This document shows positions 4,293 through 32,480 of a stretch of DNA of 64,000 nt, piece after piece. Location: assembly GCF_022458895.1 (NCBI RefSeq), contig NZ_JAINFL010000001.1, positions 186,001 to 250,000 of the forward strand, written 5' to 3'. This DNA is from Roseihalotalea indica (GTDB taxonomy: Bacteria > Bacteroidota > Bacteroidia > Cytophagales > Cyclobacteriaceae). Under the pieces are notes generated by a model. The model was not told the DNA's origin, searched no databases, and saw nothing but the letters and a program-made list of their open reading frames with translations. The stretch's first letter is position 1. Each line of letters begins with the position of its first letter. Both the position numbers and the translations under genes were made by a program.

Positions 4293-7200
4293 TAACTTCA
4301 TCCGATTTTTTTGCTGCCGCTACCGAAGCCCTCGGTATGACGATCCTCCACTCCTTGTGGCAAGGCTTTCTGCTGATGCTGGCGTTAGGGCTTTTTTTAC
4401 GATTCGGTAAATCGCTCACCCCGGCGACGCGCTTTTCAGTGGCTTTTATTACGCTGTTGCTGCTGCTGACAGCCTTTGTTGGCACTTTTTATCAGCAATG
4501 GTCTCTGGTGGCTCCGGTTACCATATCGCCCTCCCTCACGGAAACCCTCCCTGCCGAAATTACGAAAACCGCTCCGGTCGTTTTAAACCCAACTGTGGAA
4601 CAACTCACTGTCACTGAGCCCGACCGCTGGGAAGCTTTGTTCTCGCACCTCACCATCATGGCCCCCTGGCTGGCCTGGGTCTGGCTGGTAGGTAGCCTGA
4701 TTTTTATTATCCGGCTGGCCAATGGTTTGGTGCAAAACCGGCAACTACAATCGGACACCATTTCACTACCAGCTGACTGGCCTCAGCGGTTCGGTAAGTT
4801 GATGGCTCGCCTGCAAATCCGCCAGTCGGTGCGGGTTGAGAGCACTGAGCGCACCAAGGTGCCTCTGACTATCGGCTGGATAAAACCGGTAATATTGATT
4901 CCGGTCAGCCTGCTCACTTCTCTGCCCACAGATCAGGTAGAGGCGATTATGGTGCACGAACTGGCCCACATAAAACGGCAGGATTATCTGTGGAACCTGA
5001 TACAGTCGGCGGCCGAGGTGGTTTTGTTTTACCACCCGGTATACTGGTACATTTCGTCGGTATTAGAAAGGGAGCGCGAACTAGCCTGCGATGCTCTGAC
5101 TGTGGCTACTACCCGCCAGCCTCGCACCTATGCACAGGCGCTACTGGAAATTGCCGCTCGGGCTTCAGCACCCATACCCACGCAAAGCCTGGCGGCATCA
5201 GGTAAACGGGGATTGCTCAGCCGTATTCAGCAGATCATGAACCCGGATGCGCCTCGGAAAAATATCTCTGTACTTCCTTTTCTATTGCTTCTAAGTATGC
5301 TCAGCCTCTCGCTGGTGGCCTTCGCCTGGCACCAACCTGATCTGAATTTATCCTCCGATCAGGAAACAGCAGACTCGCTACATCAGCCGGTATATTCAGA
5401 TCAAGGTGGTTATGGAACGATGAAGCCGGAGTTTCTTCAGCCGCTGGAGCAGCCTGGTACAACTCCCATAGACTACGGCCCTTCTTTTCAGGAGGTGATG
5501 GCTCGCCTATCTGATGAATTTCTGGATACCACTAGCTTAACGATGGATGAGATGTATGGGCAGTCAATTACGATCGATCAGTACCTTAACCAGTTCTCGC
5601 GGAGTGCCGCCCAAAAGAGCAGCAGTGCCCTAGATAGCACCATGAATACTCCGGTTAATTATTCATCCCCCTTGATAGTCTATCTGGTAGATGGCGAGGT
5701 TATCAACCCAAAACAGGTTAAACGGTATTCGGTGCAGCACTTTGAAGTATTTCGAGCGCCGTTTTCTGCTGACTTGCAAAATCTGGTCAATCGCGAGTAC
5801 TCAGTCGTCGTCCGGGCAATTTCCAAAGAAAGCGCCTCCCGAAAGACTCAGGGCCAATTGCGCCAGCCGGATTATGTGGGTTACGGTCACTTTGCTTATC
5901 AAACCATGCCATTATCCTGGCATTTATCCTTCATCTCGCAAGATGGTTATTTAGTCGGACAGAATGACTTTAGCCAGCCAGATATCAACCCCCGAACCTT
6001 CTTTCAGAAGTCTACATTGTATATGCTTGATAACCAGGTCGTGGATAATGCCGATAATATCAGGTTGAATAAGGTTCGCCGGTTTGAGGTATACTATAAT
6101 CCGTTGCCTCAGTCATTGCAAGGCTTAAGCGATGGAAATTATTTGGCCGTAGTAAAAGCTTTTTCGCAAGAATATGAGCAACCCAATTCACTGCCGTTTG
6201 TTGCTCGCGGACAGGTTGTTACTCGGGAAGAAACTCAATACAAACCGCTTCCGAATATTAAGGTAGAAGTGAAAGAAAGCGGTCGGCAAACCTTTACCGA
6301 TGCTGTCGGTAAATTCCAGCTACCCGCCGACCCTCAGCAAACGCTCATTTTCTACTGGCCAGATGAAGAACCTCAGGAAATCGGGATTGACGGTCGAGAG
6401 TTCACCGACATAACTCATTATACGGGAACCCTCCGACTTAATAAGTATCGAGATAATCTTCAAAAACGGTTGTACCAGCGTATGGATGCCCTAGCCTTGG
6501 CGAAAGATCGCGAAGCGATTCAAAAAGAACTGAAGCGGTTAAAGCAAGCCAAAGATTCTCTTCAGTACGATAAAAGACAGGGCCTGAATGAAAAAATTAT
6601 TGACGGAAGAGTGCTTGATAGTTTTGCCAATAAAGGCATTGCCGGAGTGCTTATTAAAACACTGGAAGGCTCGGAAGCAGTTACTGATGAAAAAAGGTAT
6701 TACGAAATTTCTCTCCCCGCCACTACCCAGCAAACTACCTTCGAGTTTTCCCATCCGGATTTTCCTACCCGGCAGGTAAAGGTAGATGCTACCCTACAAA
6801 AGCAAGTGGTATTGGGTCAGGATATAATAGAAGAGGAGCAATCGGTTGTTCACAATATTCGCCTCCCGGCTGATAGTATTGGCCCCAATTCACCTGAGCA
6901 AAATAGCGATAATACCCTTTATATTATTGACGGTGTTATTCAACCGGAAGGCACTAACTTATCGGACATTCCTTCACCAGAAGGCCAAAGTACTATTTCG
7001 GTCTTCTTCGTGGGAAGCTTTTTATCTAAGAAATATGAAGAGCTTCCACTAGAAGGAAAAGAGTACATTGTGGTTATTACTAATCAGGCGAACAAAAAGG
7101 ATGCTTCTGACCGAACGGTAAGGGGCCGAATAATTGATGAAAAAACCAGCGAACCACTGGCCGGAGTAGAAATTGTCTGGGAAAATGCTCCGAATGATCA

Positions 7201-11984: not shown

Positions 11985-14900
11985 ATGAAGAGAACTTTTA
12001 CCATCATCAGCATTATTTTGCTGGTTAGTAGCGGAGTAGCACCGTTAAAAGCGCAGGTTTTAGCCGCTCGCGCACCTGCTGCTACCCGAGATCCGGCACA
12101 GCCCGATCAGTCTCTAATCAGGTTGCAGGAAGGATTAAAGGCTTTAGAAAAAAAGCACCACATATCCATTGCCTACCGGGTTGGCCTGCTGGAAGACAAG
12201 CAAGTAAAAAAACAACCGCTAGCCGATAAAACAACCTCACCGGAGGAAGACCTGGAAAAAATACTGGAAGGTTCTGGGCTACAATTTAAACGAGCCGACA
12301 CCGGGTTCTACATCATTTACTCAGAAGAAAACAATGCTTCCAAGACTCAGCTTCCGGTAAGGTCCACTCCCAAAGCAAAAACCCTGGAAAAAAATATCAG
12401 CGGCATTGTAACGGACGAAGACGGTATCGGCCTGCCAGGGGTGAACGTGCTGATTAAAAGCACCGCCATTGGCACCATCACCGATATTGAAGGAAGTTTC
12501 GAACTTAGCGCTCCCGACAGTGCCTCTACGCTGATTTTTTCCTTCGTGGGGTACATGACCAAAGAGGTTGATATAAATAATCAGTCTAACGTAAATGTCG
12601 TGCTGCAGTCGGATGCTCGGGAGCTTTCGGAAGTAGTAGTGACCGCATTGGGCATTGAGCGGGAAGAACGCTCCCTGGGCTACGCCGTGCAGGAAATCAG
12701 AACCGAGGGTATTGAGGAAGCGCGGGAAACTAATATCGTCAACTCACTGCAAGGCCGGGTAGCCGGGGTGCAGATTGCCGGATCATCTGGTAATATCGGT
12801 GGTTCATCTCGCATTCTGATTCGGGGGGCCAGCTCAGTATCCGGGAACAACCAGCCGCTGTTCGTGGTAGACGGTACTCCCATTGACAACTCTAACTTTA
12901 ATAGCGATGATACCGAAAAGGCCAATGGCGGAATTGACTACGGTAACGCTGCCCAGGACCTGAACCCGGATGACATCGCTTCAATCTCTGTCTTAAAAGG
13001 ACCCAGCGCAGCGGCTCTGTACGGTTCGCGAGCGGCCAATGGAGTGATTCTAATCACTACCAAAAGCGGAAAGGGCACCGATGGCATTGGTGTGAGTGTA
13101 AATTCTAATACCACCTTCAGCGAAGTATATATTTTACCTGACTACCAGAACGAGTACGGCGGCGGCTATAAGCAGGTATTTGATATGTACAATGGCGAAC
13201 CCATTGTAGCCACCCAGGCTGACGAAAGCTGGGGACCCCGACTGGACGGACGACTGGTACGGCAATGGTACAGCTTTTACCCCGACGACCCGGACTACGG
13301 CCAAATGACTCCCTGGGTGGCGCATCCTGATAACGTAAGAAACTTTTATGAAACCGGAGTGAATCTCTCCAACAACGTCGCTATTTCAGCGGGGGGAGAA
13401 AAGGTGAGTGCCCGATTATCGTATACCAATCTCGACCAAAGTGGGGTTTTTCCCTTTAGCGATCTGAAGCGCAACACGTTCAGCCTGAGCACTGATGCAA
13501 ACATCACCGATAAGCTGAAAGCCAGTGTGCGGCTAAACTATATCAAATCCAAAGTGAACGGTCGGCCCGTCACGGGTGATTATATTGGCGATGGTGCCCA
13601 GAGTGTGCAGTCATCGTTCAATACCTGGTTTGAGCGGCAGATTGATCTGGACCGGCTGAAAAACACCAAAACCGCTGATGGATTGCAACGCCTCTGGAAT
13701 CTGTCGGGTCCGGAAGATCTCACACCTTTTTACTGGAACAACCCGTACTGGGAGCTACAAGAGGCTTCTAACCAGGATCAGCGAGAGCGCGTATTCGGTA
13801 ATGTCTCTCTCTCGTATCAGCTTAACGATCACCTCAACCTGACCGGCTGGGTGCGTACCGATTTCTACGACGACCGCCGCGAAGCCTGGACCCCGGTGGG
13901 GCACGTCAACATCAGCTCTTATTCGGAAGACATTCGTAAGGTGAACGAAACCAACTACGAGTTTCTGGCCCAGTACACCCGCGACCTGCTAGGCAATAAC
14001 GTATCCCTCACCGCCAACCTGGGAGCCAATCGACGGGTTCAAACCCTGTACAGCAACGAAGCCAAAACCAATGGCGGTCTGAGTGTGCCGTACTTCTACA
14101 CCCTGGAGGCTTCCAAAGATCGACCGACAATCCGTGATTTTTCTTCGGAGCGCATGGTGAACAGTGTATACGGTAGCATGAACCTGGGTTTTAAGGACAT
14201 TGTCTACGTAGATGCCTCGTTGCGCAACGACTGGTCGTCGACCCTGCCGATCACCGATAACTCGTATCTGTACCCTGCCTTCTCGGGCAGTTTGGTGTTT
14301 TCAGAGCTGGTACCTGAACTGGATTTCCTCTCTTTTGGAAAAGTGCGGGCAGGCTGGGCCCGGGTAGGAAACGATACTGATCCTTATCGCTTGTATCAGA
14401 TTTATGAGCCGTTTGGTTCGTTTGGCAGCACCCCGCTGTTTACCGTACCCAATACGCTGAACAATACCCAGCTCAAGCCGGAGATTACCACCTCGTATGA
14501 AGCGGGTATCGAGCTTCGCTTCTTCAATAATCGCGTAGGGTTGGACGCTACCTACTACCAGAATGTAGCTACTAATCAGATTATTCAGTTGCCGGTGTCG
14601 GGCACTTCCGGGAACGAGTTTAACATTGTGAATGCCGGAAAAATGACCAACGATGGTGTGGAGCTGATGCTGAATGCGGTACCGCTGGAGCTGGGAAGCG
14701 GTTTTGTGTGGGAAGTGGTCGTAAACTTCGCCAAAAACAATAACAAGGTCGTTAGCCTGGCCGAAGGGCAGGAAAATTACCAGTTAGCTGATCATCGGGT
14801 GACCATCAACGCCCGGGTGGGAGAACCTTACGGAACCATTGTGGGTGATGGCTTCAAAGTTAATGAAAACGGCGAACGACTGGTAGACAGCGAAGGCTAC

Positions 14901-24754: not shown

Positions 24755-25028
24755 GGTAAAATAGGTTAGTGTAAAAAATTGTACTTTTCTGTAATTGCTG
24801 AATAGGCAGTACTTGATAAAAATAGCGTGTACTGTCGGCCCTGTTTATGAAGACGGACGAGGCTGATAATTATTTTATGTCATTGCTTATAACATGGCAT
24901 TCTAAGAGAAGGTTAAGCTGAAAGTTTAAAGAAGGGTGATTAAGAACAAAGATTTTATTCTTATTTAACTGATAATCAATATGTTATTTAATTTCTGCAA
25001 AATTATTTAAAAATAATATGCTAAAAGC

Positions 25029-25060
25029 TTGCTTTATATTTTAGTAAAAAACTACCTTTG
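25029..25060 (+). promoter_or_regulatory. Bacteroidota-type promoter of the RNA locus
   Basis: A TACCTTTG box (25053-25060) fits the Bacteroidota -7 consensus TAnnTTTG exactly, with TTG at 25029-25031, 21 bases upstream, as the -33 element. The 270 bases upstream are AT-rich and empty. The start would be near 25067, just before the first structured RNA. This is the best promoter match I saw in the window. Confidence 0.75.
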
Positions 25061-25066
25061 TAGCAT

Positions 25067-25228
25067 ACAAATAAAAAAGAGCAATGTTATATCTAAGCAT
25101 ACATATGATTTCCACCCCTAATAGCTTTCGTCAGGAAAGTGAGAAGGATGGAAACTGTATGCTCGGGCATAAATGGTAATATTTTAAGCTATTGCTATTG
25201 ACGCCCGAGCTGAGAAGTTCGGGTTTTC
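25067..25228 (+). ncRNA. Structured leader with competing hairpins (attenuator- or riboswitch-like)
   Basis: Immediately after the promoter a nested structure can be drawn: GCATACA 25097-25103 / TGTATGC 25156-25162, inside it TTTCCA 25109-25114 / TGGAAA 25149-25154 and hairpin CTTTC 25125-25129 / GAAAG 25135-25139. Next, GCTCGGGC (25161-25168) is perfectly complementary to GCCCGAGC (25203-25210), and the latter's CCCGA can instead pair with TCGGG (25219-25223), giving a hairpin followed by TTTTC. The two helices exclude each other, the layout of a terminator/antiterminator switch. I recognise no known riboswitch class. It may alternatively be a free small RNA. Confidence 0.55.
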
Positions 25229-25239
25229 TTATTTATATC

Positions 25240-25436
25240 GTTATGAAATAAAGCGTATGAAAACGACAAATTTATACATACACCCACTGGATTGTGCGCT
25301 GATGTTTCATCAACGCTCGGGAGAGGTACGGCTAAACGATGCGTATCCAGTTCAGTGCTATAGATCGGAAGATGATAGGTGAAATGATTTCGCCCAAAAA
25401 TATCCAAACCCGATCTACACCAGGTCGGGTTTTTTT
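25240..25436 (+). ncRNA. Second structured RNA ending in an intrinsic terminator
   Basis: A closing stem ACTGGAT 25286-25292 / ATCCAGT 25345-25351 encloses hairpin GCG-C-TGATG 25296-25304 / CATCA-A-CGC 25308-25316. The far end is a clear terminator: AAACCCGA 25406-25413 / TCGGGTTT 25425-25432 followed by further Ts. No credible ORF covers it. It is either a discrete small RNA or a second attenuator before the first tRNA array. No family recognised; it lacks the CGUA motif of the Y-like RNAs further on. Confidence 0.5.
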
Positions 25437-25447
25437 ATGCCCTTTCC

Positions 25448-25545
25448 GGGAGTGCGCTGAAGTTGGAGAGCTGGAGCGGTCCGCGCCACGTCGGCTGTAA
25501 AATCGTTGCTTAAACGCTTAGTAGGTTCGAATCCTACTACTCCCA
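25448..25545 (+). tRNA. tRNA-Tyr-like RNA with an expanded anticodon arm
   Basis: 98 nt. Acceptor GGGAGTG / TACTCCC (last pair G-T) with A73, D region CTGAAGTTGGAGAGCTGG and T arm GTAGG-TTCGAAT-CCTAC match a tyrosine tRNA, including CTGTAAA around a GTA anticodon and a long variable arm. About 15 extra bases (TCCGCGCCACGTCGG, 25479-25493) split the anticodon stem, which no longer pairs well. It is therefore probably a tRNA mimic or a damaged gene rather than a decoding tRNA. No CCA is encoded. Confidence 0.6.
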
Positions 25546-25586
25546 CGAGACAGTTGATAAATGTGGTCAACATGTATGCTATAACA

Positions 25587-25670
25587 TGACTCATAGCTCA
25601 GTCAGAGCACCTGCCTTATACGCAGTAGGTTCCCGGCCATCGTGGTACGATTCGATTCTGGGTGAGTCAA
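25587..25670 (+). tRNA. tRNA-like RNA with UAU anticodon and T-arm insertion
   Basis: 84 nt. Acceptor TGACTCA / TGAGTCA is perfect, D stem GCTC/GAGC has a loop of only five bases, anticodon arm CTGC-CTTATAC-GCAG would read anticodon TAT. The T stem CCCGG / CTGGG is intact, but 14 bases, CCATCGTGGTACGA (25637-25650), are inserted between its 5' strand and the TTCGATT loop. The same insertion recurs at 26017 and 28938. An Ile(UAU) tRNA is unusual in bacteria. Probably a mimic. Confidence 0.6.
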
Positions 25671-25678
25671 CAATACTG

Positions 25679-25752
25679 GGTGCAGTAGTTCAATTGCGTG
25701 GAATACCCCGCTGTCGCCGGGGAGGTTGCGAGTTCGAGTCTCGTCTGCACCG
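25679..25752 (+). tRNA. tRNA-Asp(GTC)-like
   Basis: 74 nt and close to canonical: acceptor GGTGCAG / CTGCACC, anticodon arm CCCCG-CTGTCGC-CGGGG with GTC, T arm GCGAG-TTCGAGT-CTCGT, and G73 as in aspartate tRNAs. The one oddity is the D loop, AATTGCGTG, where the conserved G18-G19 pair reads GC, which would weaken the D-loop/T-loop contact. It may be a working tRNA, a spare copy or a mimic. Confidence 0.75.
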
Positions 25753-25957
25753 CGCTGAAGGAGGGGCAAAACGGGTGCCTCCTACAAAATCGGAGAAGGG
25801 TTAAAGGCCCTACACAGGATTCCGTTTGTTCTGTTATGTTCTGAGGAAGCTCCGAAGCAATCAGCAGGTGATGTCTTCTGGGCCATGAGCAGTACGCTTG
25901 TCGGCTCAGAGGTCTAGCCTCAAAAAAATTAACGAGTAAGATTCTTAGAATTTCACT
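25753..25957 (+). other. 205-base structured stretch between tRNA-like genes
   Basis: No T loop, no Y-type CGUA motif and no credible ORF. Short helices can be drawn: GGAGG 25760-25764 / CCTCC, GGCCC near 25807 / GGGCC near 25880, TGAGC 25886-25890 / GCTCA near 25904. It could be a degraded tRNA-like unit or a separate small RNA of this locus. Confidence 0.35.
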
Positions 25958-25962
25958 CATAT

Positions 25963-26050
25963 GGTGATCTTATTGTAAAGGTAGCATGCTAGTTTGTGAA
26001 GCTAGAGGAATAGGGCCATCGTGGCGCGATTCGAGTCCCATAGATCACCC
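25963..26050 (+). tRNA. tRNA-His(GTG)-like with T-arm insertion
   Basis: 88 nt. Acceptor GGTGATC / GATCACC is perfect and position 73 is C, a histidine-specific feature. The anticodon arm CTAGT-TTGTGAA-GCTAG gives anticodon GTG. The D stem is poor. The base before G1 is T, so the encoded G-1 needed by histidyl-tRNA synthetase is absent. The T arm contains CCATCGTGGCGCGA (26017-26030), the same insertion as at 25637, between the 5' T-stem strand and the TTCGAGT loop. A histidine tRNA turned mimic is the likeliest reading. Confidence 0.6.
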
Positions 26051-26078
26051 AATAATGTTTAATTAAATTGTAGAAGCC

Positions 26079-26576
26079 ATGACCATGCAACTATTGGAGC
26101 AGTACATGCTGGAAGCTGATCGAGCCTTCGCCCAGGAAGACTACGTGAAGGGTAAAAGCCTGATCGAGGAAGCCCTGGCGCTGGAGCCGGACTATGGCGA
26201 GGCCCATAACTACCTGGGGTGGCTGTATCTGTACCAACTCAATGATCCCGAACGGGCTGAGGGGCATTTGAAGCTAGCAATTCGCTACAAACCCAATTGC
26301 CGGGGTGCGTATGTACACCTCTCGGCAATGTTTATCGACCAGGGGCGTTTTGAGGAGCTGCAGTCCCTTATGCCTAAAGCATTAGAGGTGCGAGGCATTA
26401 ACCGGGTATCTCTGTTGGTAGATTGGGGGCGCATGTACGAGCTAATGGGGAAGTACCGGCAGGCCGTGCGCACCTACAAAGAAGCCATGAAAGCAAGTCT
26501 GAGCAACAGTGAAATCGATGGCCTGCGCGATCATATTCGCCGCAGCCGACGAAAGCGCTGGGTTCGCTGGATATAA
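26079..26576 (+). CDS. TPR-repeat protein of the Ro60 locus
   Basis: 165 aa, no signal peptide, so cytoplasmic. Three tetratricopeptide units are visible, near residues 10-45 (DRAFAQEDYVKGKSLIEEAL, ALEPDYGEAHNYLGWLYL), 50-85 and 105-150, with the typical W/L/G/Y/A/P spacing. The C-terminus is strongly basic (RRSRRKRWVRW), compatible with RNA contact. It sits between the tRNA-like array and the Ro60 gene, 63 bp upstream of the latter on the same strand. TPR proteins are scaffolds, so it may connect Ro60 to a partner. That role is inference. Confidence 0.7.
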   Translation: MTMQLLEQYMLEADRAFAQEDYVKGKSLIEEALALEPDYGEAHNYLGWLYLYQLNDPERAEGHLKLAIRYKPNCRGAYVHLSAMFIDQGRFEELQSLMPKALEVRGINRVSLLVDWGRMYELMGKYRQAVRTYKEAMKASLSNSEIDGLRDHIRRSRRKRWVRWI

Positions 26577-26638
26577 ATCAGTCCTGGATTTCAAAATTAA
26601 ATGCAGGGCTACTAAAAAATGAAAAAAGCATAGAAATC

Positions 26639-28168
26639 ATGCGATTTAATATTGGAACTAAACGAGCTAATAAAGTCAAAAACTACGAAGGAGCAGATGC
26701 TTACACCATGAGTCCGGCTCTGGAGCTGTACGCTAGCGTGGTGACTACCAGCTTAGGCGATAAGTTCTACGAGTCAGATCAGAAGCGAGTGCAGCGGCTG
26801 CGGGAGCTGATCGCGAAAAACGATCCGCAGTTTGTAGCAAAGCTTGCCATATACGCCCGGGAGCAGATGTACCTGCGTTCGGTGCCTCTGGTGCTGGCGG
26901 TGGAGCTGGCGAAAGTACACCGGGGCGATAGTCTGGTGAGCCGGACGGTAGCTCGAGTGGTGCAACGAGCCGATGAGATCACGGAATTGCTGGCGTACTA
27001 CGCAGTAGCGAACGGACGGAATAAGGCGAAAAAACTTAATCTGTTATCGAAGCAGGTACAGAAAGGGTTGGCTGAGGCATTCAATAAGTTCGACGAGTAC
27101 CAATTGGCGAAGTACAATCGGGCCACCGAAGTGAAGCTGAAGGATGCCCTGTTTCTGGTGCACCCTAAAGCCAAGGACGAAGCCCAGCAAGCGCTGTTCA
27201 ACAAACTGATCAACGACGAGCTGGCGATGCCTTACACTTGGGAAACCAGCCTGTCGGCACGGGGACAGCAGTCCTTTGCCAATGCGGAAGAAAAGCGAGC
27301 TGCGTTCCGGGCTAGCTGGGAGGAACTGATCGATAGCGGAAAGCTGGGTTACATGGCAATGCTGCGTAACCTGCGGAATATCCTGGAAGCCGAAGTATCG
27401 GCGGATCGACTGCGGAAGGTCTGCGCTGTGCTGGGAGACGCCCGGGTGGTGGCCCGATCCAAGCAGTTACCGTTTCGCTTCCTGGCCGCCTACCGGGAGA
27501 TCAAAACTCTGAACCGAGACGAAAGCACTCAGGTGCTGAATGCCCTGGAAGCGGCCGCCCGGGCCAGCGCTGAGAACATCCCCGGCTTTGACGAAAGCGT
27601 GCGCGTGCTGATCGCTTGCGACGTGTCCGGCTCAATGCAGCGGACGATCTCGCCAAAGAGCAAGGTGCAGAACTACGACATCGGTCTGATGCTCGGGATG
27701 TTGCTGCAGCATCGTTGCCGACGGGTAACTACCGGTATCTTCGGAGACCGGTGGAAGGTGATTAACCTGCCGCAGGGCAATATTCTGGCGAATGTGGACG
27801 AACTGCATCGTCGAGAAGGTGAGGTAGGGTACTCTACCAACGGTTACCTGATCATCCGGGATCTGATCAACCGGCGAGCCGTAGTGGATAAGGTGATGAT
27901 TTTCACCGACTGCCAACTGTGGAATTCCAACGGCTATGGAGCTTCCAATAGGGAAACCATCGCTCAGATGTGGGGTCAATACAAGCAGATAGCTCCTAAC
28001 GCAAAGCTGTACCTGTTTGACCTGGCGGGCTACGGGAATACTCCACTGGATACCCGGGGTAACGATGTGTTCCTGATAGCCGGTTGGTCCGATAAAGTGT
28101 TTGCAGTACTACAGGCGATCGAGCAAGGTGGTCAGGCCGTGGCCGAAATTAAAAAGATTGCGCTGTAG
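26639..28168 (+). CDS. rsr: Ro60/Rsr ortholog (TROVE domain RNA-binding protein)
   Basis: 509 aa, the usual size. Residues about 1-330 are the TROVE/HEAT-repeat ring (start AYTMSPALELYASVVTTSL, then repeats with ...LVLAVELAKVHRGDSLVSRTV...); residues about 325-509 are a von Willebrand A domain whose metal-site motif DVSGSMQ is intact, with a second site TDCQLW. Ro60 binds the ends of misfolded RNAs in its central hole and Y RNAs on its outer surface; in bacteria it works with nucleases in RNA decay and under stress. Here it is flanked by two tRNA-like arrays, five Y-RNA-like units just downstream, and RtcB 3 kb on. Strong identification. Confidence 0.95.
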   Translation: MRFNIGTKRANKVKNYEGADAYTMSPALELYASVVTTSLGDKFYESDQKRVQRLRELIAKNDPQFVAKLAIYAREQMYLRSVPLVLAVELAKVHRGDSLVSRTVARVVQRADEITELLAYYAVANGRNKAKKLNLLSKQVQKGLAEAFNKFDEYQLAKYNRATEVKLKDALFLVHPKAKDEAQQALFNKLINDELAMPYTWETSLSARGQQSFANAEEKRAAFRASWEELIDSGKLGYMAMLRNLRNILEAEVSADRLRKVCAVLGDARVVARSKQLPFRFLAAYREIKTLNRDESTQVLNALEAAARASAENIPGFDESVRVLIACDVSGSMQRTISPKSKVQNYDIGLMLGMLLQHRCRRVTTGIFGDRWKVINLPQGNILANVDELHRREGEVGYSTNGYLIIRDLINRRAVVDKVMIFTDCQLWNSNGYGASNRETIAQMWGQYKQIAPNAKLYLFDLAGYGNTPLDTRGNDVFLIAGWSDKVFAVLQAIEQGGQAVAEIKKIAL

Positions 28169-28175
28169 GTGAAAA

Positions 28176-28210
28176 AGGACTGTTGGTCAATTCAGATCAG
28201 CAGTCCTCTT
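28176..28210 (+). terminator. Hairpin after rsr
   Basis: AGGACTG 28176-28182 / CAGTCCT 28201-28207, eight bases after the stop. It is followed only by CTTAAAAAG, so it may be a processing or partial-termination structure that separates the mRNA from the downstream RNA array. Confidence 0.5.
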
Positions 28211-28217
28211 AAAAAGC

Positions 28218-28291
28218 GTGCTCGTAGCTCAGTTGGCTAGAGCTCCTGACTTTTAATCAGGAAGTCGCGGGTTCGAGTCCCGCCGGGCACA
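28218..28291 (+). tRNA. tRNA-Lys(TTT)
   Basis: 74 nt, fully canonical: acceptor GTGCTCG / CGGGCAC, D arm GCTC-AGTTGGCTA-GAGC, anticodon arm CCTGA-CTTTTAA-TCAGG with TTT, T arm GCGGG-TTCGAGT-CCCGC, A73, no encoded CCA. It opens the second array, directly after the Ro60 gene. It looks able to work in translation, in contrast to most of its neighbours. Confidence 0.9.
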
Positions 28292-28337
28292 CAAAAAGTA
28301 ATTTAAGTAATGTAAAGTTGAATAGATGCTTAAAACC

Positions 28338-28457
28338 GGGAGGATGTCGTAGAAGTGAATTACTTCGCACCTTATGGGGAGGATTAGCCCGTAGAGGCTA
28401 ACTAGGTTCGAATCCTAGCTTTGCGTGCCCCGATTTACTTCGTTTGTTACTCCTTCT
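28338..28457 (+). ncRNA. Y-RNA-like unit 1: T arm plus one hairpin
   Basis: 120 nt. Outer helix GGAGGA 28339-28344 / TCCTTC 28451-28456, bulged T 28345, pairs G346-C450 and T347-A449, then CGTA 28348-28351 facing the 7-nt loop GTTTGTT 28442-28448, then a 9-bp inner helix 28352-28360 / 28433-28441. The head holds GGGG 28376-28379 / CCCC 28428-28431, a hairpin TTAGCC-CGTAGA-GGCTAA (28384-28401) and a perfect T arm CTAGG-TTCGAAT-CCTAG (28402-28418). There is no anticodon arm. The two-helix stem with internal loop matches the layout of Ro60-binding Y RNA stems. Confidence 0.75.
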
Positions 28458-28520
28458 TTCAATCGATAAGAAAAGATAAAGCAAATAGATATGATAAACT
28501 AAATCAGAAATCAAAAGAAA

Positions 28521-28666
28521 AAAAGGTGTCGTAGAGCAGCGTTACTTCGACTGATTCTCGAGAGGTCGGAGGTTCGAATCCTCCCAGCTCCACTCTTGAT
28601 ACTAAATGGGGCTGTAGCTCAGTTGGTCAGAGCACTTATGTTCGCTGTTCGCTTGTTACCCTTTTT
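28521..28666 (+). ncRNA. Y-RNA-like unit 2: circularly permuted tRNA-Ala-like head
   Basis: 146 nt. Outer helix AAAAGG / CCTTTT (28521-28526 / 28660-28665), bulged T 28527, G528-C659 and T529-A658, CGTA 28530-28533 against GCTTGTT 28651-28657, inner helix GAGCAGCG 28534-28541 / CGCTGTTC 28643-28650. In the head the tRNA order is reversed: T arm GGAGG-TTCGAAT-CCTCC (28568-28584), acceptor 3' strand CAGCTCC plus A (28585-28592), 15-nt linker, acceptor 5' strand GGGGCTG (28608-28614), D arm TA-GCTC-AGTTGGTCA-GAGC (28615-28633). The Y stem occupies the anticodon-stem position. The acceptor keeps G3-U70 and A73, the alanine identity set. Confidence 0.8.
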
Positions 28667-28672
28667 GTTTAC

Positions 28673-28800
28673 AAAAGCTGCCGTAGAAATGGAATACATC
28701 GCTTTCATTGGACGAGTTGGTTAAGTCGCCGATATTGCAATCGGAAATGGCGGGTTCGAGTCCCGTATGAAAAATGTTCTGTTTCGCTAGTTGCGCTTTT
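28673..28800 (+). ncRNA. Y-RNA-like unit 3: complete cloverleaf on a Y stem
   Basis: 128 nt. Outer helix AAAAGC 28673-28678 / GCTTTT 28795-28800, bulged T 28679, G680-C794 and C681-G793, CGTA 28682-28685 against GCTAGTT 28786-28792, inner helix 28686-28696 / 28775-28785 (11 pairs, three of them wobbles). The head is a tRNA in normal order: acceptor TTTCAT / ATGAAA, D stem GAC/GTC with a GAGTTGGTTAA loop, anticodon stem CCGAT/ATCGG enclosing ATTGCA (cysteine-like), T arm GCGGG-TTCGAGT-CCCGT. The acceptor end is buried in the Y stem, so it cannot be aminoacylated without cleavage. Confidence 0.78.
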
Positions 28801-28804
28801 ACCT

Positions 28805-28882
28805 AAGTGGTGCCGTAGAAAAGAGATCCTTCGTTAGACGTTTAATCTAGAGCGAAAAGCTCTTTTCGTCTGTTGCCCACTT
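28805..28882 (+). ncRNA. Y-RNA-like unit 4: minimal hairpin form
   Basis: 78 nt, the shortest. Outer helix AAGTGG 28805-28810 / CCACTT 28877-28882, bulged T 28811, G812-C876 and C813-G875, CGTA 28814-28817 against GTCTGTT 28868-28874, perfect inner helix GAAAAGAG 28818-28825 / CTCTTTTC 28860-28867. The 34-nt head has one small hairpin, TAGA-CGTTTAA-TCTA, with a 7-nt loop like an anticodon loop, but no T or D arm. A T-run follows the outer helix, so it may end transcription too. Confidence 0.75.
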
Positions 28883-28892
28883 TTAAAAAAAC

Positions 28893-29065
28893 ACCGAAAG
28901 ATGTCGTAAATGAGCGTTACTTCGTGGTAAACATAGGCCATCGTGGCGTTCCACGCGGGGCGCGATTCGAATCCTGTCCCCGGCTCTTAGAAAAAACTAT
29001 GCCGGGAAAAGCTTCTAGTTGTATCAGAAGCAATTGAGGCGCTTGTTGCCCATTACTCTTTCGGT
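28893..29065 (+). ncRNA. Y-RNA-like unit 5: permuted tRNA head with T-arm insertion
   Basis: 173 nt. Outer helix ACCGAAAGA 28893-28901 / TCTTTCGGT 29057-29065, bulged T 28902, G903-C29056 and T904-A29055, CGTA 28905-28908 against GCCCATT 29048-29054, inner helix 28909-28916 / 29040-29047. Head order is permuted: T stem ATAGG / CCTGT with a 28-nt insertion (28938-28965) before its TTCGAAT loop, acceptor 3' strand CCCCGGC 28978-28984, 16-nt linker, acceptor 5' strand GCCGGG 29001-29006, D-like arm GCTTCT-AGTTGTATC-AGAAGC. The insertion begins CCATCGTGG and ends CGCGA, as in the array-1 insertions. The glutamate tRNA starts 5 nt later. Confidence 0.75.
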
Positions 29066-29069
29066 TTAT

Positions 29070-29142
29070 GCTCCCGTGGTCCAACGGCTTAAGACACTTG
29101 ACTTTCTATCAAGAGATACGAGTTCGATTCTCGTCGGGAGTG
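29070..29142 (+). tRNA. tRNA-Glu(TTC)
   Basis: 73 nt: acceptor GCTCCCG / CGGGAGT (terminal G-T wobble), D arm GTC...GAC with AACGG loop, anticodon arm CTTGA-CTTTCTA-TCAAG with TTC, T arm ACGAG-TTCGATT-CTCGT, G73 as usual for glutamate. No CCA encoded. It follows Y-like unit 5 by four bases, so the two are surely one transcript. Confidence 0.85.
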
Positions 29143-29148
29143 CTTAAT

Positions 29149-29379
29149 GCCCCTGTAGCTCTAAGTGGCAGAGCGCGGTAAAACACTGTATGAACCGGTC
29201 GCAGGGATCAAGGTTTCCGGACGGCTGAATCGTGGTGAATAGCCCAGTAAGCCCCAGCACCGCTCCGGCGGCCCGGCGAACAGCCTCTCGGGGAAGCTCA
29301 GTAGGGAAGCGTGTCTCCTGGTCTCAGGCTAAGTCTGATATAAGTCAGACGAGTGCGAGTTCAAATCTCGTCGGGGGCT
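29149..29379 (+). ncRNA. 231-nt tRNA-like RNA with a ~155-nt internal insertion
   Basis: The ends are a normal tRNA: acceptor GCCCCTG 29149-29155 / CGGGGGC 29372-29378 (one T-G pair), D arm TA-GCTC-TAAGTGGCA-GAGC, and T arm GCGAG-TTCAAAT-CTCGT. Between D and T arms lies about 180 nt in place of the usual 22-25. Helices within it include CGGT/ACCG near 29177, GGCT/AGCC (29223-29244), CCTG/CAGG near 29328 and a 6-bp stem GTCTGA-TATAAG-TCAGAC just before the T arm that could be the real anticodon arm. It may be an intron-bearing tRNA or a tRNA-capped regulatory RNA. At about 155 nt it is too short for a typical group I intron. Confidence 0.6.
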
Positions 29380-29392
29380 CAATGAATTTTAC

Positions 29393-29464
29393 AGCGAGTT
29401 AGTCTAATGGCTAAGACGCTTCTCTCATAAGGAAGAGAAACCGGTTCGATTCCGGTACTCGCTA
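29393..29464 (+). tRNA. tRNA with CAT anticodon (Met or Ile2)
   Basis: 72 nt, canonical cloverleaf: acceptor AGCGAGT / ACTCGCT, D arm GTCT-AATGGCTA-AGAC, anticodon arm CTTCT-CTCATAA-GGAAG with CAT, T arm ACCGG-TTCGATT-CCGGT, A73. The A1-T72 pair is unusual for elongator tRNA-Met, so identity (Met, lysidine-modified Ile, or mimic) is open. Confidence 0.8.
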
Positions 29465-29516
29465 CTGTCAACTTTTATAAAATGAAAATGATGCATTACA
29501 GACAAAATATCAGAGA

Positions 29517-29566
29517 ACTTCACCAGTGACTAGCGCTAAAAGATGGCAATGTCTAGTGGGTGAAGT
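29517..29566 (+). other. Long hairpin between array 2 and the downstream mRNA
   Basis: ACTTCACC 29517-29524 / GGTGAAGT 29559-29566 encloses ACTAG 29529-29533 / CTAGT 29553-29557. It lies 52 bases before the next start codon, with no T-run. It may mark an RNase processing site separating RNAs from the mRNA, or a 5'-UTR structure. Confidence 0.4.
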
Positions 29567-29617
29567 CAGTAGCAGAAAAGCAAGAAAATATGATCACTCA
29601 TTATCAAAAACATTGTC

Positions 29618-30562
29618 ATGGACAATTCACTACTGGGGTTTATACAGGCTACGGTGGATCTGCGAGATTCTTATTACTATTTCAAAGACAAGTATGCTTT
29701 GGATTTGCTCACTTACTCTATTGAGGAAAAGCAGGTGAGCATTAATCAGCTGAAAAAATCACGCTGGGGGTTTCTGTTTCAAAAAAAAGTCCTGCAAAAA
29801 ATCACTGCTCAATTGCCCGATCAGAAGTTGGATAAGCGACGGCTTACCTCTTACTGGCCGTGGTATAGCGGAGAGTATCGATTGAGCTTAGGCAAGTGGG
29901 GAGAATATAGTAAGCACCGGAACGACGATTGGTATCAGACCTCCCGGCCGGGAGTAAATCTGGTGTTGCAGCTTAACTTTGGCGAGGAGCATAATCTGAA
30001 GTATTATAAACTCATATTTCCTAGCATGTTTCATCCTTTTGTAAATCTGTGCCATCCCATTGCCGAAAAAGGGCTTACGCTGGCCTGGGCGAGGATGGAC
30101 ATAGATTTTGATACAGGAGAAGTGCTTATTGAAGAGATTCAAACCGACTGGCTGCGCAGTGTGAAAAAATTGGTAGCCACCTTAGCCCGAGGAGAGTCGT
30201 ATTGGAAACAGTACTATCCTTCTTTAGAGCCAACGCATTTACGCCACTACTACCAGGAAGAGGTTTATAAACACGAAAAAGTATGGGACGAGGCGATGCT
30301 AGCCGCGGCTTTATGGTTTGTCAAACGAGAGCTGGGTCTGGCTAAAGTGTACTACCATACATTTGATACCGGAAATATTATGAAACAGCTCACGTACAGC
30401 CAGCCACCTCGCTCGCTTTACACCAAGCTTCCCCGGCGATTCGGTTTTCGGGAGACCGAGGAAGCGCCGCAGTTTTTACGAAAGGAGCACTATTTAAAAA
30501 GAACGTTCAAAAAACACCCAAACCTGAAATGGTTTGTACTCAACTTAGAAAGTCATGCATAA
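29618..30562 (+). CDS. Uncharacterised protein of the Ro60-RtcB locus
   Basis: 314 aa, cytoplasmic (no signal or membrane segment), basic and rich in Trp/Tyr. I do not recognise the family. A block near residues 150-180 (WARMDIDFDTGEVLIEEIQ, TDWLR) resembles the IEEIQ-S-D-W motif I associate with toxin or phage-linked proteins of unknown biochemistry. His- and Tyr-rich stretches follow (LRHYYQEEVYKHEKVWDE). It overlaps the next gene by 8 bp, so both are made together. Position between Y-like RNAs and RtcB suggests an RNA-related role; that is inference. Confidence 0.65.
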   Translation: MDNSLLGFIQATVDLRDSYYYFKDKYALDLLTYSIEEKQVSINQLKKSRWGFLFQKKVLQKITAQLPDQKLDKRRLTSYWPWYSGEYRLSLGKWGEYSKHRNDDWYQTSRPGVNLVLQLNFGEEHNLKYYKLIFPSMFHPFVNLCHPIAEKGLTLAWARMDIDFDTGEVLIEEIQTDWLRSVKKLVATLARGESYWKQYYPSLEPTHLRHYYQEEVYKHEKVWDEAMLAAALWFVKRELGLAKVYYHTFDTGNIMKQLTYSQPPRSLYTKLPRRFGFRETEEAPQFLRKEHYLKRTFKKHPNLKWFVLNLESHA

Positions 30563-30959
30563 CGTACAACTACTTTACCGTCCTGTGGGAATCAATGAGC
30601 TACACAAAATCATTGATCTGGATTTTCTGGGTTTTCCTCCCCGACTGGAGTGGCAGCCCATCTTTTACCCAGTACTCAACTTCGAGTATGCGGAGCAGAT
30701 TGCCAGAGATTGGAACGCTAAGGGAGATGAAGGGATTGGTTTCGTCACGCGCTTTGCGGTAGATGCAAATTATCTTCGCCAGTTTGACGTACAAACAGTA
30801 GGAGGGGAAATTCATCAGGAGTTATGGATTCCGGCGCAGGAGTTAGATACTTTCAACCGTATGATTCAGGGAAAAATTGAAGTCATTTCGGCCTACTACG
30901 GTGAGAAATTTGACCGGAAACGGATGCCCTCATTCTTAAGCTTAGGGTTTAAACCCTAA
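30555..30959 (+). CDS. Uncharacterised 134-aa protein (family often labelled ADP-ribosylation/crystallin J1)
   Basis: 134 aa. The pattern L-Y-R-P-V-G near the N-terminus, FYPVLNFEYAEQIARDWN, GFVTRFAVD and a C-terminal ELWIPAQELDTFN matches a small family that, from memory, is labelled ADP-ribosylation/crystallin J1 in databases. That label has weak support, so no enzymatic claim is made. It overlaps the upstream unknown gene by 8 bp and precedes RtcB by 49 bp. Confidence 0.6.
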   Translation: MHNVQLLYRPVGINELHKIIDLDFLGFPPRLEWQPIFYPVLNFEYAEQIARDWNAKGDEGIGFVTRFAVDANYLRQFDVQTVGGEIHQELWIPAQELDTFNRMIQGKIEVISAYYGEKFDRKRMPSFLSLGFKP

Positions 30960-31008
30960 GCTTAGGAGAATCTACAATTCGATTAAAAAACAAAAAAGAA
31001 TATCAATC

Positions 31009-32424
31009 ATGGCAACGAATAAAGTAAGCGGAAAAGAGCTACGGCAACTAGGCTACCCTGAGGGGAAAGTCATTGGTCTGGCCTTGCAGTTCATTGAGGA
31101 AGGATATAAAGGTAAAAGCAAAAAATTTAAGCTGGATCTACTGAAAAAAGTGCTTCAATATCCGCACAACTTCGTGAAAGACGAGGCAGTAGGAGCAATT
31201 GCTCAGGCCTTAATGACTCCAACTGAAGATTCAGGACGAATTGCTCTGAACAAGCAGCGGAAGGATTACCCGATCTACGGCGAAACCGGGATTGAAGAAG
31301 GGGCCAAGCACCAGATGAATGTAGCGATGAAGTTGCCCGTTACGGTAGCCGGAGCGCTCATGCCCGATGCCCACCAGGGCTACGGACTGCCTATTGGCGG
31401 GGTACTGGCAACGAAAAATGCGGTGATTCCCTACGGAGTCGGGGTAGACATTGGTTGCCGAATGTGTATGACCTTCTATGACTTACCGGAATCTCACCTG
31501 ACCGAGCGGAACGATCAGCTTCGGCAGATGCTGATGGATAACACCCGATTCGGGCAGGCTACCTTTCAGCGACCTCAGGACGATGCTGTGCTGGAGCGAA
31601 GCGAGTTTCAGGACATCAAAATCGTGCGGGATCTGAAAGACCGGGCCTATAAGCAGATTGGTTCTTCCGGGGGAGGAAACCACTTCGTGGAGTTCGGAGT
31701 GGTGGAAGTAGTGGATGCCGAGAACGAGTTTGGAGTGCCGGTGGGCAAGTACCTGGCGGTGCTGTCGCATTCCGGCTCGCGAGGATTGGGAGCCAACATT
31801 GCAGCACACTACACCCGAATCGCCAAATCGGTATGCCAGCTACCGGACGAAGCCAAGCACCTGGCCTGGCTGGATCTGGATTCGGAAGCCGGACAAGAGT
31901 ACTGGCAGGCGATGACGCTGGCGGGTGACTATGCTTCGGCTTGTCACCACCAGATTCACCGGCGACTGGGGAAGACATTGGGAGAGAGTCCGCTGGCGAT
32001 GGTGGAGAACCACCATAACTTTGCCTGGAAGGAGCAGGATGCCGACGGCAACGAGATTATCGTGCACCGGAAAGGAGCCACTCCGGCCGGAAAAGGAGTG
32101 CTGGGGATCATCCCCGGCTCCATGACGGACCCCGGCTTTATTGTACGAGGACGGGGAGTAGTGGATTCCATCAACTCGGCGTCCCACGGTGCCGGGCGGG
32201 TGATGTCGCGGCGAAAAGCCAAGCAGTCTATTACCGAGCAGGAGGTAACCGAAGCTTTGAAAAAAGCGAAAGTGACGCTGATTGGCTCTGGCCTGGATGA
32301 AGCCCCGATGGCCTACAAAGACATCCGGGCCGTGATGCGGGAGCAGCAGGACCTGGTGGATATTGTAGGCTCCTTCCATCCCCGGATCGTCCGGATGTGC
32401 GGCCCGAATGAGGGGTGGAGTTAG
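31009..32424 (+). CDS. rtcB: RtcB RNA ligase
   Basis: 471 aa. All hallmarks are present: the metal-binding MPDAHQGYGLPIGG, the DIGCRM Cys ligand, NHFVEFG, SHSGSRG, and the guanylate-accepting His in SASHGAGR. RtcB joins RNA 2',3'-cyclic phosphate or 3'-phosphate ends to 5'-OH ends using GTP and Mn2+, repairing tRNAs and other RNAs cut by nucleases. Neither RtcA cyclase nor RtcR sigma-54 regulator lies in the window. It is the last gene of the RNA locus and is followed by a strong terminator. Its company with Ro60 parallels the rsr-yrlA-rtcB type operons known from enterobacteria. Confidence 0.96.
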   Translation: MATNKVSGKELRQLGYPEGKVIGLALQFIEEGYKGKSKKFKLDLLKKVLQYPHNFVKDEAVGAIAQALMTPTEDSGRIALNKQRKDYPIYGETGIEEGAKHQMNVAMKLPVTVAGALMPDAHQGYGLPIGGVLATKNAVIPYGVGVDIGCRMCMTFYDLPESHLTERNDQLRQMLMDNTRFGQATFQRPQDDAVLERSEFQDIKIVRDLKDRAYKQIGSSGGGNHFVEFGVVEVVDAENEFGVPVGKYLAVLSHSGSRGLGANIAAHYTRIAKSVCQLPDEAKHLAWLDLDSEAGQEYWQAMTLAGDYASACHHQIHRRLGKTLGESPLAMVENHHNFAWKEQDADGNEIIVHRKGATPAGKGVLGIIPGSMTDPGFIVRGRGVVDSINSASHGAGRVMSRRKAKQSITEQEVTEALKKAKVTLIGSGLDEAPMAYKDIRAVMREQQDLVDIVGSFHPRIVRMCGPNEGWS

Positions 32425-32445
32425 ATAGATCACAACGCAGCAAGC

Positions 32446-32480
32446 AAGGCCGGTGGGATACGTTCCACTGGCCTTTTTTT
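32446..32480 (+). terminator. Strong terminator after rtcB
   Basis: AAGGCC-G-GTGG / CCAC-T-GGCCTT with a single mismatch and a 9-nt loop, then T7. It marks the end of the RNA locus. Confidence 0.9.

What the first reader, a model, noticed from the sequence alone, without database searches (positions are those of the whole stretch)
25029..32480. Ro60 - tRNA-mimic array - RtcB RNA locus from one promoter to one terminator
Within 7.5 kb there are a Ro60/Rsr gene, five Y-RNA-like units, four to six ordinary or near-ordinary tRNAs, three or more tRNA mimics, a TPR protein, two unknown proteins and the RNA ligase RtcB. rsr, Y RNA and rtcB association is established in enterobacteria; a large diversified array of tRNA-mimic Y RNAs split around rsr is not something I know described. 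It suggests a modular system in which Ro60 is tethered to different partners, or sampled tRNA decoys, for tRNA repair or decay.
Basis: partly seen in the sequence, partly recalled or inferred. Interest (0 to 1): 0.95.

Follow-up and report, generated by a model that had tools for sequence, protein, structure and literature searches.

The report
Ro60 locus with spare tRNA bank
A bacterial gene cluster that encodes the RNA-binding protein Ro60 and the RNA ligase RtcB also carries five genes whose RNAs are predicted to fold as Ro60's Y RNA partners and a group of tRNA genes, a combination that likely helps the cell recover when its tRNAs are cut.

Summary
The observation largely holds. The window carries Ro60 (rsr), RtcB, a TPR protein, two proteins without Pfam match, four clear free tRNAs, tRNA-like genes (two with a T-loop insert), and five units matching a Y RNA covariance model over its full length. 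One is YrlA-like (a permuted tRNA on a Ro60-type stem); another is a whole tRNA body grafted onto such a stem.

All 80 other rsr loci examined also carry Y RNA units, mostly two to seven, mostly just downstream of rsr. This is the known rsr–Y RNA–rtcB RNA-repair operon. The unusual layer is accessory: 15 of 81 loci also hold 3–17 free tRNA genes. These keep acylation and decoding signatures, mostly duplicate existing anticodons in two genomes tested, and differ from housekeeping tRNAs at anticodon-loop positions 32, 37 and 38. Some phage Ro60 genes sit in similar arrays.

Most likely mechanism (inferred): a tRNA damage-response unit in which RtcB reseals cut tRNAs, spare tRNAs replace lost ones, and Ro60–Y RNAs route broken tRNAs to decay. 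'One promoter to one terminator' is not supported. New variant of a known kind.

The parts
25028..25060 (+). promoter-like element, Bacteroidota type (consensus recalled)
   Evidence: pattern match, not above chance by itself; conserved in L008
25203..25224 (+). terminator-like hairpin 1 in the leader
   Evidence: conserved in L008
25406..25432 (+). terminator-like hairpin 2 in the leader
   Evidence: conserved in L008
25448..25546 (+). tRNA-Tyr-like gene with an enlarged D-arm region
   Evidence: by eye; not called by ARAGORN or by Rfam at gathering
25587..25670 (+). tRNA-like gene (Ile-like in L008) with a 14-nt insert in the T loop
   Evidence: Rfam tRNA 38.3 bits; insert seen
25679..25753 (+). 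tRNA-Asp(GTC), G at loop position 37
25964..26049 (+). tRNA-like gene (His-like by eye) with a 14-nt insert in the T loop
   Evidence: Rfam tRNA 33 bits; insert seen
26079..26576 (+). TPR protein, 165 aa
   Evidence: a relative in the same place in L008 only, of 80 loci
26639..28168 (+). Ro60/Rsr (TROVE plus vWA), 509 aa
28218..28292 (+). tRNA-Lys(TTT)
   Evidence: 73.2 bits
28337..28458 (+). Y RNA unit 1, tRNA-like module in normal order without anticodon arm
   Evidence: R1 44.5 bits
28519..28667 (+). Y RNA unit 2, YrlA-like permuted tRNA module
   Evidence: R1 124.5 bits, training member; Rfam YrlA 36.3 bits, below its cut-off of 69; own fold
28671..28802 (+). Y RNA unit 3, whole tRNA body (28702-28774) inside the Ro60-type stem
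   Evidence: R1 39.8 bits; Rfam tRNA 41.3 bits inside; tRNA-Gln call at the same place in L008
28803..28884 (+). Y RNA unit 4, short hairpin module
   Evidence: R1 53.8 bits
28894..29064 (+). Y RNA unit 5, long module with T-arm-like piece and longer GC insert
   Evidence: R1 48.5 bits
29070..29143 (+). tRNA-Glu(TTC), U at loop position 37
29145..29385 (+). degenerate tRNA-like pieces
   Evidence: by eye
29393..29465 (+). tRNA-Met(CAT)
29618..30562 (+). 314-aa protein, marginally GNAT-like fold
30555..30959 (+). 134-aa protein, ADP-ribosyltransferase-like fold
   Evidence: relatives near rsr in 5 of 80 other loci
31009..32424 (+). RNA ligase RtcB, 471 aa
32446..32475 (+). terminator-like hairpin after rtcB

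Best explanation
The window holds an rsr–Y RNA–rtcB locus in which five genes predicted to encode Y RNAs of several shapes and a group of tRNA and tRNA-like genes lie around the Ro60 gene, and it likely works as a tRNA damage-response unit: RtcB would reseal cut tRNAs, the spare tRNAs would stand in for those lost, and Ro60, steered by tRNA-mimicking Y RNAs, would likely hand broken tRNAs to decay. Shown by computation: the genes, the Y RNA stem and its covariation, the several effector shapes, and that free tRNAs of such arrays keep decoding and acylation signatures, mostly duplicate anticodons already present (two genomes examined) and differ from housekeeping tRNAs at loop positions 32, 37 and 38. 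Inferred: that the tRNAs are made under stress, that the altered loops escape anticodon nucleases, that Ro60 binds these Y RNAs and hands substrates to a nuclease such as PNPase, and that RtcB acts on tRNAs here. The tRNA group is an accessory layer on a core of Ro60 plus several Y RNAs, with RtcB often beside it.
For: All 81 loci have a full-length Y RNA match (counted by eye in the 300 of 344 rows listed). 113 C-G, 80 U-A, 14 U-G and 3 unpaired cells at an inner stem pair in 210 units; 30 of 34 pairs with two-sided changes in 31 permuted units; swapped-partner control 222 against 6 of 302. In 148 genomes all listed full-length matches of 45 bits or more fall in the 11 genomes that have Rsr. 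15 of 81 loci have three or more free tRNAs, 140 in all, while the two genomes with a full tRNA list show one other cluster of that size each. Array tRNAs: N73 as in housekeeping tRNAs of the isotype in 120 of 138 against 62 on average (maximum 77) with shuffled labels; U33 in 135 of 140. Loop positions 32/37/38 differ in 43/43/46 of 126 against 7/2/1 of 109 housekeeping. The Salmonella operon of the same order is induced by broken tRNAs (PMC7790460, passages); altered anticodon loops in phage tRNAs are proposed to evade anticodon nucleases (PMC10264068, abstract and passages). Ro60 genes lie among 23 and 25 tRNAs in two actinophages.
Against: No expression, binding or cleavage data. No genome is held for the window, so redundancy was not tested for it; in the nearest relative 2 of 6 array anticodons (Ile TAT, Glu TTC) were not found elsewhere in an assembly of many contigs. 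The window's own array has only four free ARAGORN tRNAs, and others look degenerate. 66 of 81 loci lack the tRNA group. Array tRNAs are diverged in the body too (median identity 0.69 against 0.89), so loop changes need not be selected; Lys, Trp and most Tyr, Asn and Met loops are unchanged. Five of the seven housekeeping sets are samples of the best-scoring matches. RtcB lies in the fetched stretch in only 44 of 81 loci. No PADLOC match for five proteins of the locus.
Confidence: 0.48

Rival explanations
1. Decoy model: the Y RNAs and the degenerate tRNAs are bait. They would occupy anticodon nucleases or tRNA-maturation enzymes, and Ro60 would hold and clear the bait.
For: Unit 3 carries a whole tRNA body closed by a stem; window tRNA-like genes carry inserts; Hughes et al. 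suggest that the YrlA tRNA-like domain could act as a competitive inhibitor of the anticodon nuclease (PMC7790460, passage).
Against: Most array tRNAs keep identity base, U33 and T loop; the permuted Y RNA module has no anticodon arm, so it cannot bait a nuclease that reads the anticodon loop.
Confidence: 0.25
2. Incidental cluster: ordinary extra tRNAs for codon supply happen to lie next to an rsr-Y RNA-rtcB operon, without shared function.
For: Only 15 of 81 loci have the tRNAs; array tRNAs look functional.
Against: Three or more tRNAs beside rsr in 15 of 81 loci, against one other such cluster per genome in the two genomes listed in full; tRNAs interleaved with Y RNAs; similar company in phages. 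No matched-gene control was run.
Confidence: 0.15
3. Decaying remnant: the tRNA genes are debris of a phage-like tRNA array that landed beside rsr and is being lost.
For: Inserts and degenerate pieces in the window; patchy presence; Ro60 among tRNAs in phages.
Against: In L008 the downstream part (Lys, Y units, Glu, Met) keeps its order; array tRNAs in 15 loci keep functional signatures.
Confidence: 0.08
4. tRNA-intron model: the T-loop inserts are small introns, removed and sealed by RtcB.
For: Without the insert the T loop would be canonical by inspection; RtcB is next door; presence differs between window and L008 at matching genes.
Against: The same 14-nt hairpin occurs 16 times in the relative's genome (reversed-pattern control 1), 11 of them outside the array, one inside a simple tandem repeat, so it looks like a dispersed repeat. 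Among the 88 sequences then held, the strict pattern lies in no array but those of the window and L008.
Confidence: 0.04

Closest known systems
Salmonella rsr-yrlBA-rtcBA RNA repair operon (Hughes et al. 2020, PMC7790460, passages seen)
   Same: Order rsr, Y RNAs, rtcB; tRNA-mimicking Y RNA; RtcB implicated in tRNA repair.
   Different: Here five Y RNAs, free tRNA genes in the same stretch, no rtcA beside rtcB (DUF72 follows) and no RtcR-type gene divergent upstream (an aldo/keto reductase).
YrlA (Rfam RF02553; described in PMC8394870, passages seen)
   Same: Basal stem plus tRNA-like D, T and acceptor arms; window unit 2 matches the model over 1-114.
   Different: Score 36.3, below the cut-off of 69; other units have normal-order, whole-tRNA, short or long modules.
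Phage tRNA arrays (van den Berg et al. 2023, PMC10264068, abstract and passages seen) and Ro60/TROVE in jumbo phages (PMC7824862, passages seen)
   Same: Clustered redundant tRNAs with altered anticodon loops; RNA ligases and TROVE proteins in tRNA-rich phages.
   Different: The window's flanking genes look like ordinary bacterial genes; in the passages seen the jumbo-phage paper names TROVE and tRNA counts but not a Ro60-linked array.
Anabaena trn operon under TrcR (PMC10272220, abstract and passages seen)
   Same: 26 spare tRNA genes induced by translational stress, with rtcB under the same repressor.
   Different: rtcB is on the chromosome while trn is on a megaplasmid; the term Ro60 does not occur in that text.

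Membership tests
YrlA-type Y RNA | gene beside rsr, same strand | tested here: met
   five units in the window; 263 of 281 units within 2.5 kb downstream of rsr
YrlA-type Y RNA | long basal stem of 5' and 3' ends with conserved inner loop | tested here: met
YrlA-type Y RNA | permuted tRNA-like module (T arm, acceptor hairpin, D arm) | tested here: met
   met for window unit 2; not for units 1, 3, 4, 5, which have other modules
YrlA-type Y RNA | Rfam RF02553 score above the curated cut-off | tested here: not met
   36.3 against 69 bits; 0 of 30 genomes searched reach it
YrlA-type Y RNA | binds Ro60 | not testable with these tools
   needs pull-down
rsr-Y-rtcBA RNA repair operon | rsr, Y RNAs and rtcB in this order on one strand | tested here: met
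rsr-Y-rtcBA RNA repair operon | rtcA next to rtcB and rtcR divergent upstream | tested here: not met
   neighbours are DUF72 downstream and an aldo/keto reductase upstream; rtcA elsewhere in the window or genome was not tested
phage-type spare tRNA array | clustered tRNAs that duplicate the host's anticodons | tested here: inconclusive
   14 of 14 in G155 and 4 of 6 in G001; not testable for the window, whose genome is not held
phage-type spare tRNA array | anticodon-loop positions altered against housekeeping tRNAs | tested here: met
   43/43/46 of 126 against 7/2/1 of 109 at 32/37/38 for the 15 arrays together
phage-type spare tRNA array | carried by a phage genome | not tested
   no prophage search was made; flanking genes in 19.6-36 kb look like ordinary bacterial genes
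Tpt1/KptA tRNA 2'-phosphotransferase (134-aa protein) | Tpt1-type ADP-ribosyltransferase fold | tested here: inconclusive

The most novel reading that the evidence does not exclude
Ro60 is the hub of a tRNA bank shared by bacteria and phages: a core of Ro60 plus a family of Y RNAs whose effector ends are re-built by grafting array tRNAs onto a constant Ro60-binding stem, coupled to replaceable spare tRNAs with edited anticodon loops and to RtcB, so that damaged tRNAs are recognised by kind, resealed or destroyed, and replaced.
Probability: 0.3. Interest if true: 0.87.

Novelty: new variant of a known kind. Interest (0 to 1): 0.62.

Why it matters
What bacterial Ro60 and its Y RNAs do beside RtcB is an open question; in the sources I saw, the tRNA link rests mainly on the Salmonella operon. 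Here one locus type carries the protein, several different tRNA mimics, spare tRNAs and the ligase, and Ro60, Y RNAs and tRNA arrays also occur together in some phages. If the spare tRNAs resist tRNA-cutting enzymes, this would be a defence or recovery system held by bacteria as well as by their viruses, and Ro60's cargo could be tested directly. Alignment A4 and model R1 also give a way to find Y RNAs that the Rfam model misses at its cut-off.

Tried and rejected
tRNA introns spliced by RtcB: attractive from the T-loop inserts; set aside when the 14-nt hairpin proved to be dispersed in the relative's genome.

Rfam YrlA as a discriminator: below-cut-off matches in 29 of 30 genomes, but also in 9 of 14 control genomes, probably because tandem tRNAs look like a permuted tRNA; replaced by my own model, which includes the Ro60 stem.

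ARAGORN counts: nine calls that overlap Y units were removed before the final counts; the earlier counts with them in gave similar results. Two array calls without a clear anticodon (counted as '???') stay in the 140.

Defence annotation: no PADLOC match for five proteins. PHROGs gives RNA-binding and RtcB families for Rsr and RtcB and nothing for the two unknown proteins.

Folds: the 314-aa protein is only marginally GNAT-like; the 134-aa protein is ART-like but not assignable to Tpt1 or another ART family.

RtcB enrichment at array loci: not claimed; RtcB is common near rsr anyway (44 of 81).

Literature: searches list titles and the start of abstracts only (for 10, 86, 87 and 105 a part of the papers found: 20 of 75, 15 of 58, 15 of 237, 10 of 26); one search found none. 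None of the listed titles or abstract starts describes Ro60-linked tRNA arrays. The library holds open-licence papers only, and Sim et al. 2020, Chen et al. 2014 and Burroughs & Aravind 2016 are not held, so a description there is possible.


Full report
1. What is there. The stretch holds, in order on the + strand: a leader with two terminator-like hairpins, two tRNA-like genes, tRNA-Asp and a further tRNA-like gene, a TPR protein, Ro60/Rsr, tRNA-Lys, five Y RNA units, tRNA-Glu, degenerate tRNA-like pieces, tRNA-Met, two proteins without Pfam match, and RtcB. ARAGORN calls six tRNAs in the whole 64 kb and all six lie here; two of them (28525, 28702) overlap Y RNA units.

2. The Y RNA signal is real. 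Record titles are mostly of Bacteroidota; two MAG titles (L046, L082) name other taxa. A pairing search finds 281 units in 81 loci: 263 within 2.5 kb downstream of rsr, 16 within 4 kb upstream, 2 elsewhere; 71 of 81 loci have two to seven, nine have one, one has eight. With partners swapped between loci 6 of 302 reach the score that 222 of 302 reach with their own partner. In the 210 units with a 9-nt 3' loop the inner pair is C-G in 113, U-A in 80, U-G in 14 and unpaired in 3; my detection gave a bonus to certain 3' ends but did not look at the 5' base. For 31 of 38 one-per-locus candidates of the permuted type (one search lists the 38) RNAalifold returns a basal stem, inner loop, T arm, acceptor hairpin and D arm, with two-sided changes in 30 of 34 pairs. 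Stem, T-arm and acceptor pairing had also been used in picking these units; the D arm had not.

3. Model test. Model R1 matches all five window units over its full length; four of these were not in its training set. At E<=1e-6 it gives 344 matches in the 81 loci; in the 300 rows listed each of the 81 loci has at least one full-length match (counted by eye; the 31 training units are among them). In 148 genomes of the nearest relative's family 11 have Rsr. In the rows listed, all full-length matches of 45 bits or more lie in those 11 genomes, each of which has at least one; among the other 137 one full-length match (35.8 bits, G114) is listed. The Rfam YrlA model matches window unit 2 with 36.3 bits, E=2.1e-5, below its cut-off of 69; such low matches also ring in 9 of 14 control genomes, so R1 carries the argument.

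4. The units differ at their effector ends. Unit 28519-28667 is a circularly permuted tRNA (T arm, acceptor hairpin, D arm) and folds so on its own. Unit 28671-28802 encloses a whole tRNA body (Rfam tRNA 41.3 bits), called tRNA-Gln at the same place in L008. Unit 28337-28458 has a normal-order module without anticodon arm, unit 28803-28884 is short, unit 28894-29064 is long. Over 281 units my rule-based sorting gives 116 permuted, 34 normal-order, 31 short, 31 without T arm and 69 ambiguous; 64 of 81 loci have a permuted one.

5. The tRNA group. After removal of nine ARAGORN calls that overlap Y units, 15 of 81 loci have three or more free tRNAs on the rsr strand within -5/+6 kb of rsr, 140 in all. 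In the two genomes whose tRNA matches were listed in full I see one other cluster of three or more within 12.5 kb each; no matched-gene control was run. I compared the 140 with 145 housekeeping tRNAs of seven of these genomes; two sets are near-complete, five are samples of the rows listed, best-scoring first. Array tRNAs keep U33 in 135 of 140, a canonical T loop in 131 and six or more acceptor pairs in 137 (housekeeping: 144, 135 and 144 of 145); the discriminator base equals the housekeeping base of the isotype in 120 of 138, against a mean of 62 and a maximum of 77 in 2000 shuffles of the isotype labels. Loop positions 32, 37 and 38 differ from the housekeeping consensus in 43, 43 and 46 of 126, against 7, 2 and 1 of 109 (anticodons with at least two housekeeping copies). 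Arg(ACG) has A37 in 7 of 7 against G37 in 3 of 3, Asp differs at 37 in 7 of 9 against 0 of 6, while Lys(TTT) is unchanged in 12 of 12. In G155 all 14 array anticodons are also served outside the array; in G001 4 of 6 are. Array tRNAs are diverged in the body too (median identity to the best housekeeping tRNA with the same anticodon 0.69, against 0.89 between housekeeping tRNAs of different genomes), so the loop changes are suggestive, not proof of selection.

6. Phages. 93 of 50,697 phage records match Rsr. Of 11 stretches fetched from the 30 records listed, 7 carry full-length R1 matches at E<=1e-9, Caulobacter phage CcrColossus seven of them. ARAGORN calls three or more tRNAs in 3 of 11 (Atuin 23, GiJojo 25, Bambus 3) and at least one in 8 of 11; three of these calls (L253 Lys, L258 Asn, L260 Arg) overlap R1 matches. 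Of seven IMG/VR contigs with Rsr four have three or more tRNA calls, and R1 matches of 97 bits or more lie beside rsr in three.

7. Proteins. The 134-aa protein before rtcB is modelled with high confidence as an ADP-ribosyltransferase-like fold. Tpt1/KptA, an RNA-processing enzyme, gives the best Foldseek rows (E=1.4e-3), but other ART-fold proteins score as well or better in the second alignment, so no activity is claimed. A relative lies near rsr in 5 of 80 other loci. The 314-aa protein is marginally GNAT-like and was found in none of the 80 others. RtcB lies in the fetched stretch in 44 of 81 loci, in 38 downstream of rsr on the same strand; 8 loci have less than 5 kb of downstream DNA.

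8. Mechanism. The Salmonella operon with the order rsr-yrlBA-rtcBA is switched on by broken tRNAs, and RtcB is implicated in their repair; in Deinococcus the Y RNA tethers Rsr to PNPase for decay of structured RNA (PMC7790460, passages). Phage tRNAs with altered anticodon loops are proposed to escape anticodon nucleases (PMC10264068, abstract and passages). Putting these with the tRNA group, I take the locus to be a recovery unit: reseal, replace, destroy. Every functional step is inferred. The main rivals are decoy RNAs and an incidental tRNA cluster.

9. Novelty. Y RNAs that mimic tRNA and their place beside rsr and rtcB are known (PMC8394870, passages); I recall from the abstract of Chen et al. 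2014 (not held) likely Y RNAs near Ro60 in more than 250 bacterial and phage species. In the lists returned I saw no title or abstract start describing Ro60-linked tRNA arrays. I file it as a new variant of a known kind.

Noticed in passing
window 25637-25650 and 26016-26029; L008 8986, 11951, 12337, 12587, 12777: A 14-nt GC-rich micro-hairpin, CC[A/G]NCGTGGN[A/G]CGN, inserted mostly before a T, often in T loops; 16 copies in the relative's 7.6-Mb genome against 1 for the reversed pattern, 11 of them outside the array, one cleanly inside a tandem repeat. A dispersed, mobile-looking repeat.
   Followed up: partly
window 25000-25440: Leader 79% identical to L008 with two conserved terminator-like hairpins before the array; could be attenuators or two small leader RNAs.
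   Followed up: partly
window 25679 and 25964 against L008 9023 and 9267: Between conserved flanks the upstream tRNAs differ in kind: Asp against Gln, and a His-like gene against Phe, suggesting fast turnover of array members.
   Followed up: no
L255 4840-5945 (Caulobacter phage CcrColossus): Seven full-length Y RNA model matches upstream of the phage TROVE gene; the record's annotated tRNA-Gln at 5161-5228 lies inside one of them.
   Followed up: no
L257 (haloarchaeal virus HGTV-1): TROVE protein, RtcB and a tRNA-Asp annotated with an intron within about 7 kb; no full-length R1 match.
   Followed up: no
L008 about 13005-14306: In place of the window's 314-aa protein the nearest relative has another, longer open frame with a PcfJ-like motif (motif recalled, not searched).
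   Followed up: no
14 control genomes: Rfam YrlA gives below-cut-off matches in 9 of 14 control genomes, probably on tandem tRNA genes that mimic a permuted tRNA.
   Followed up: partly
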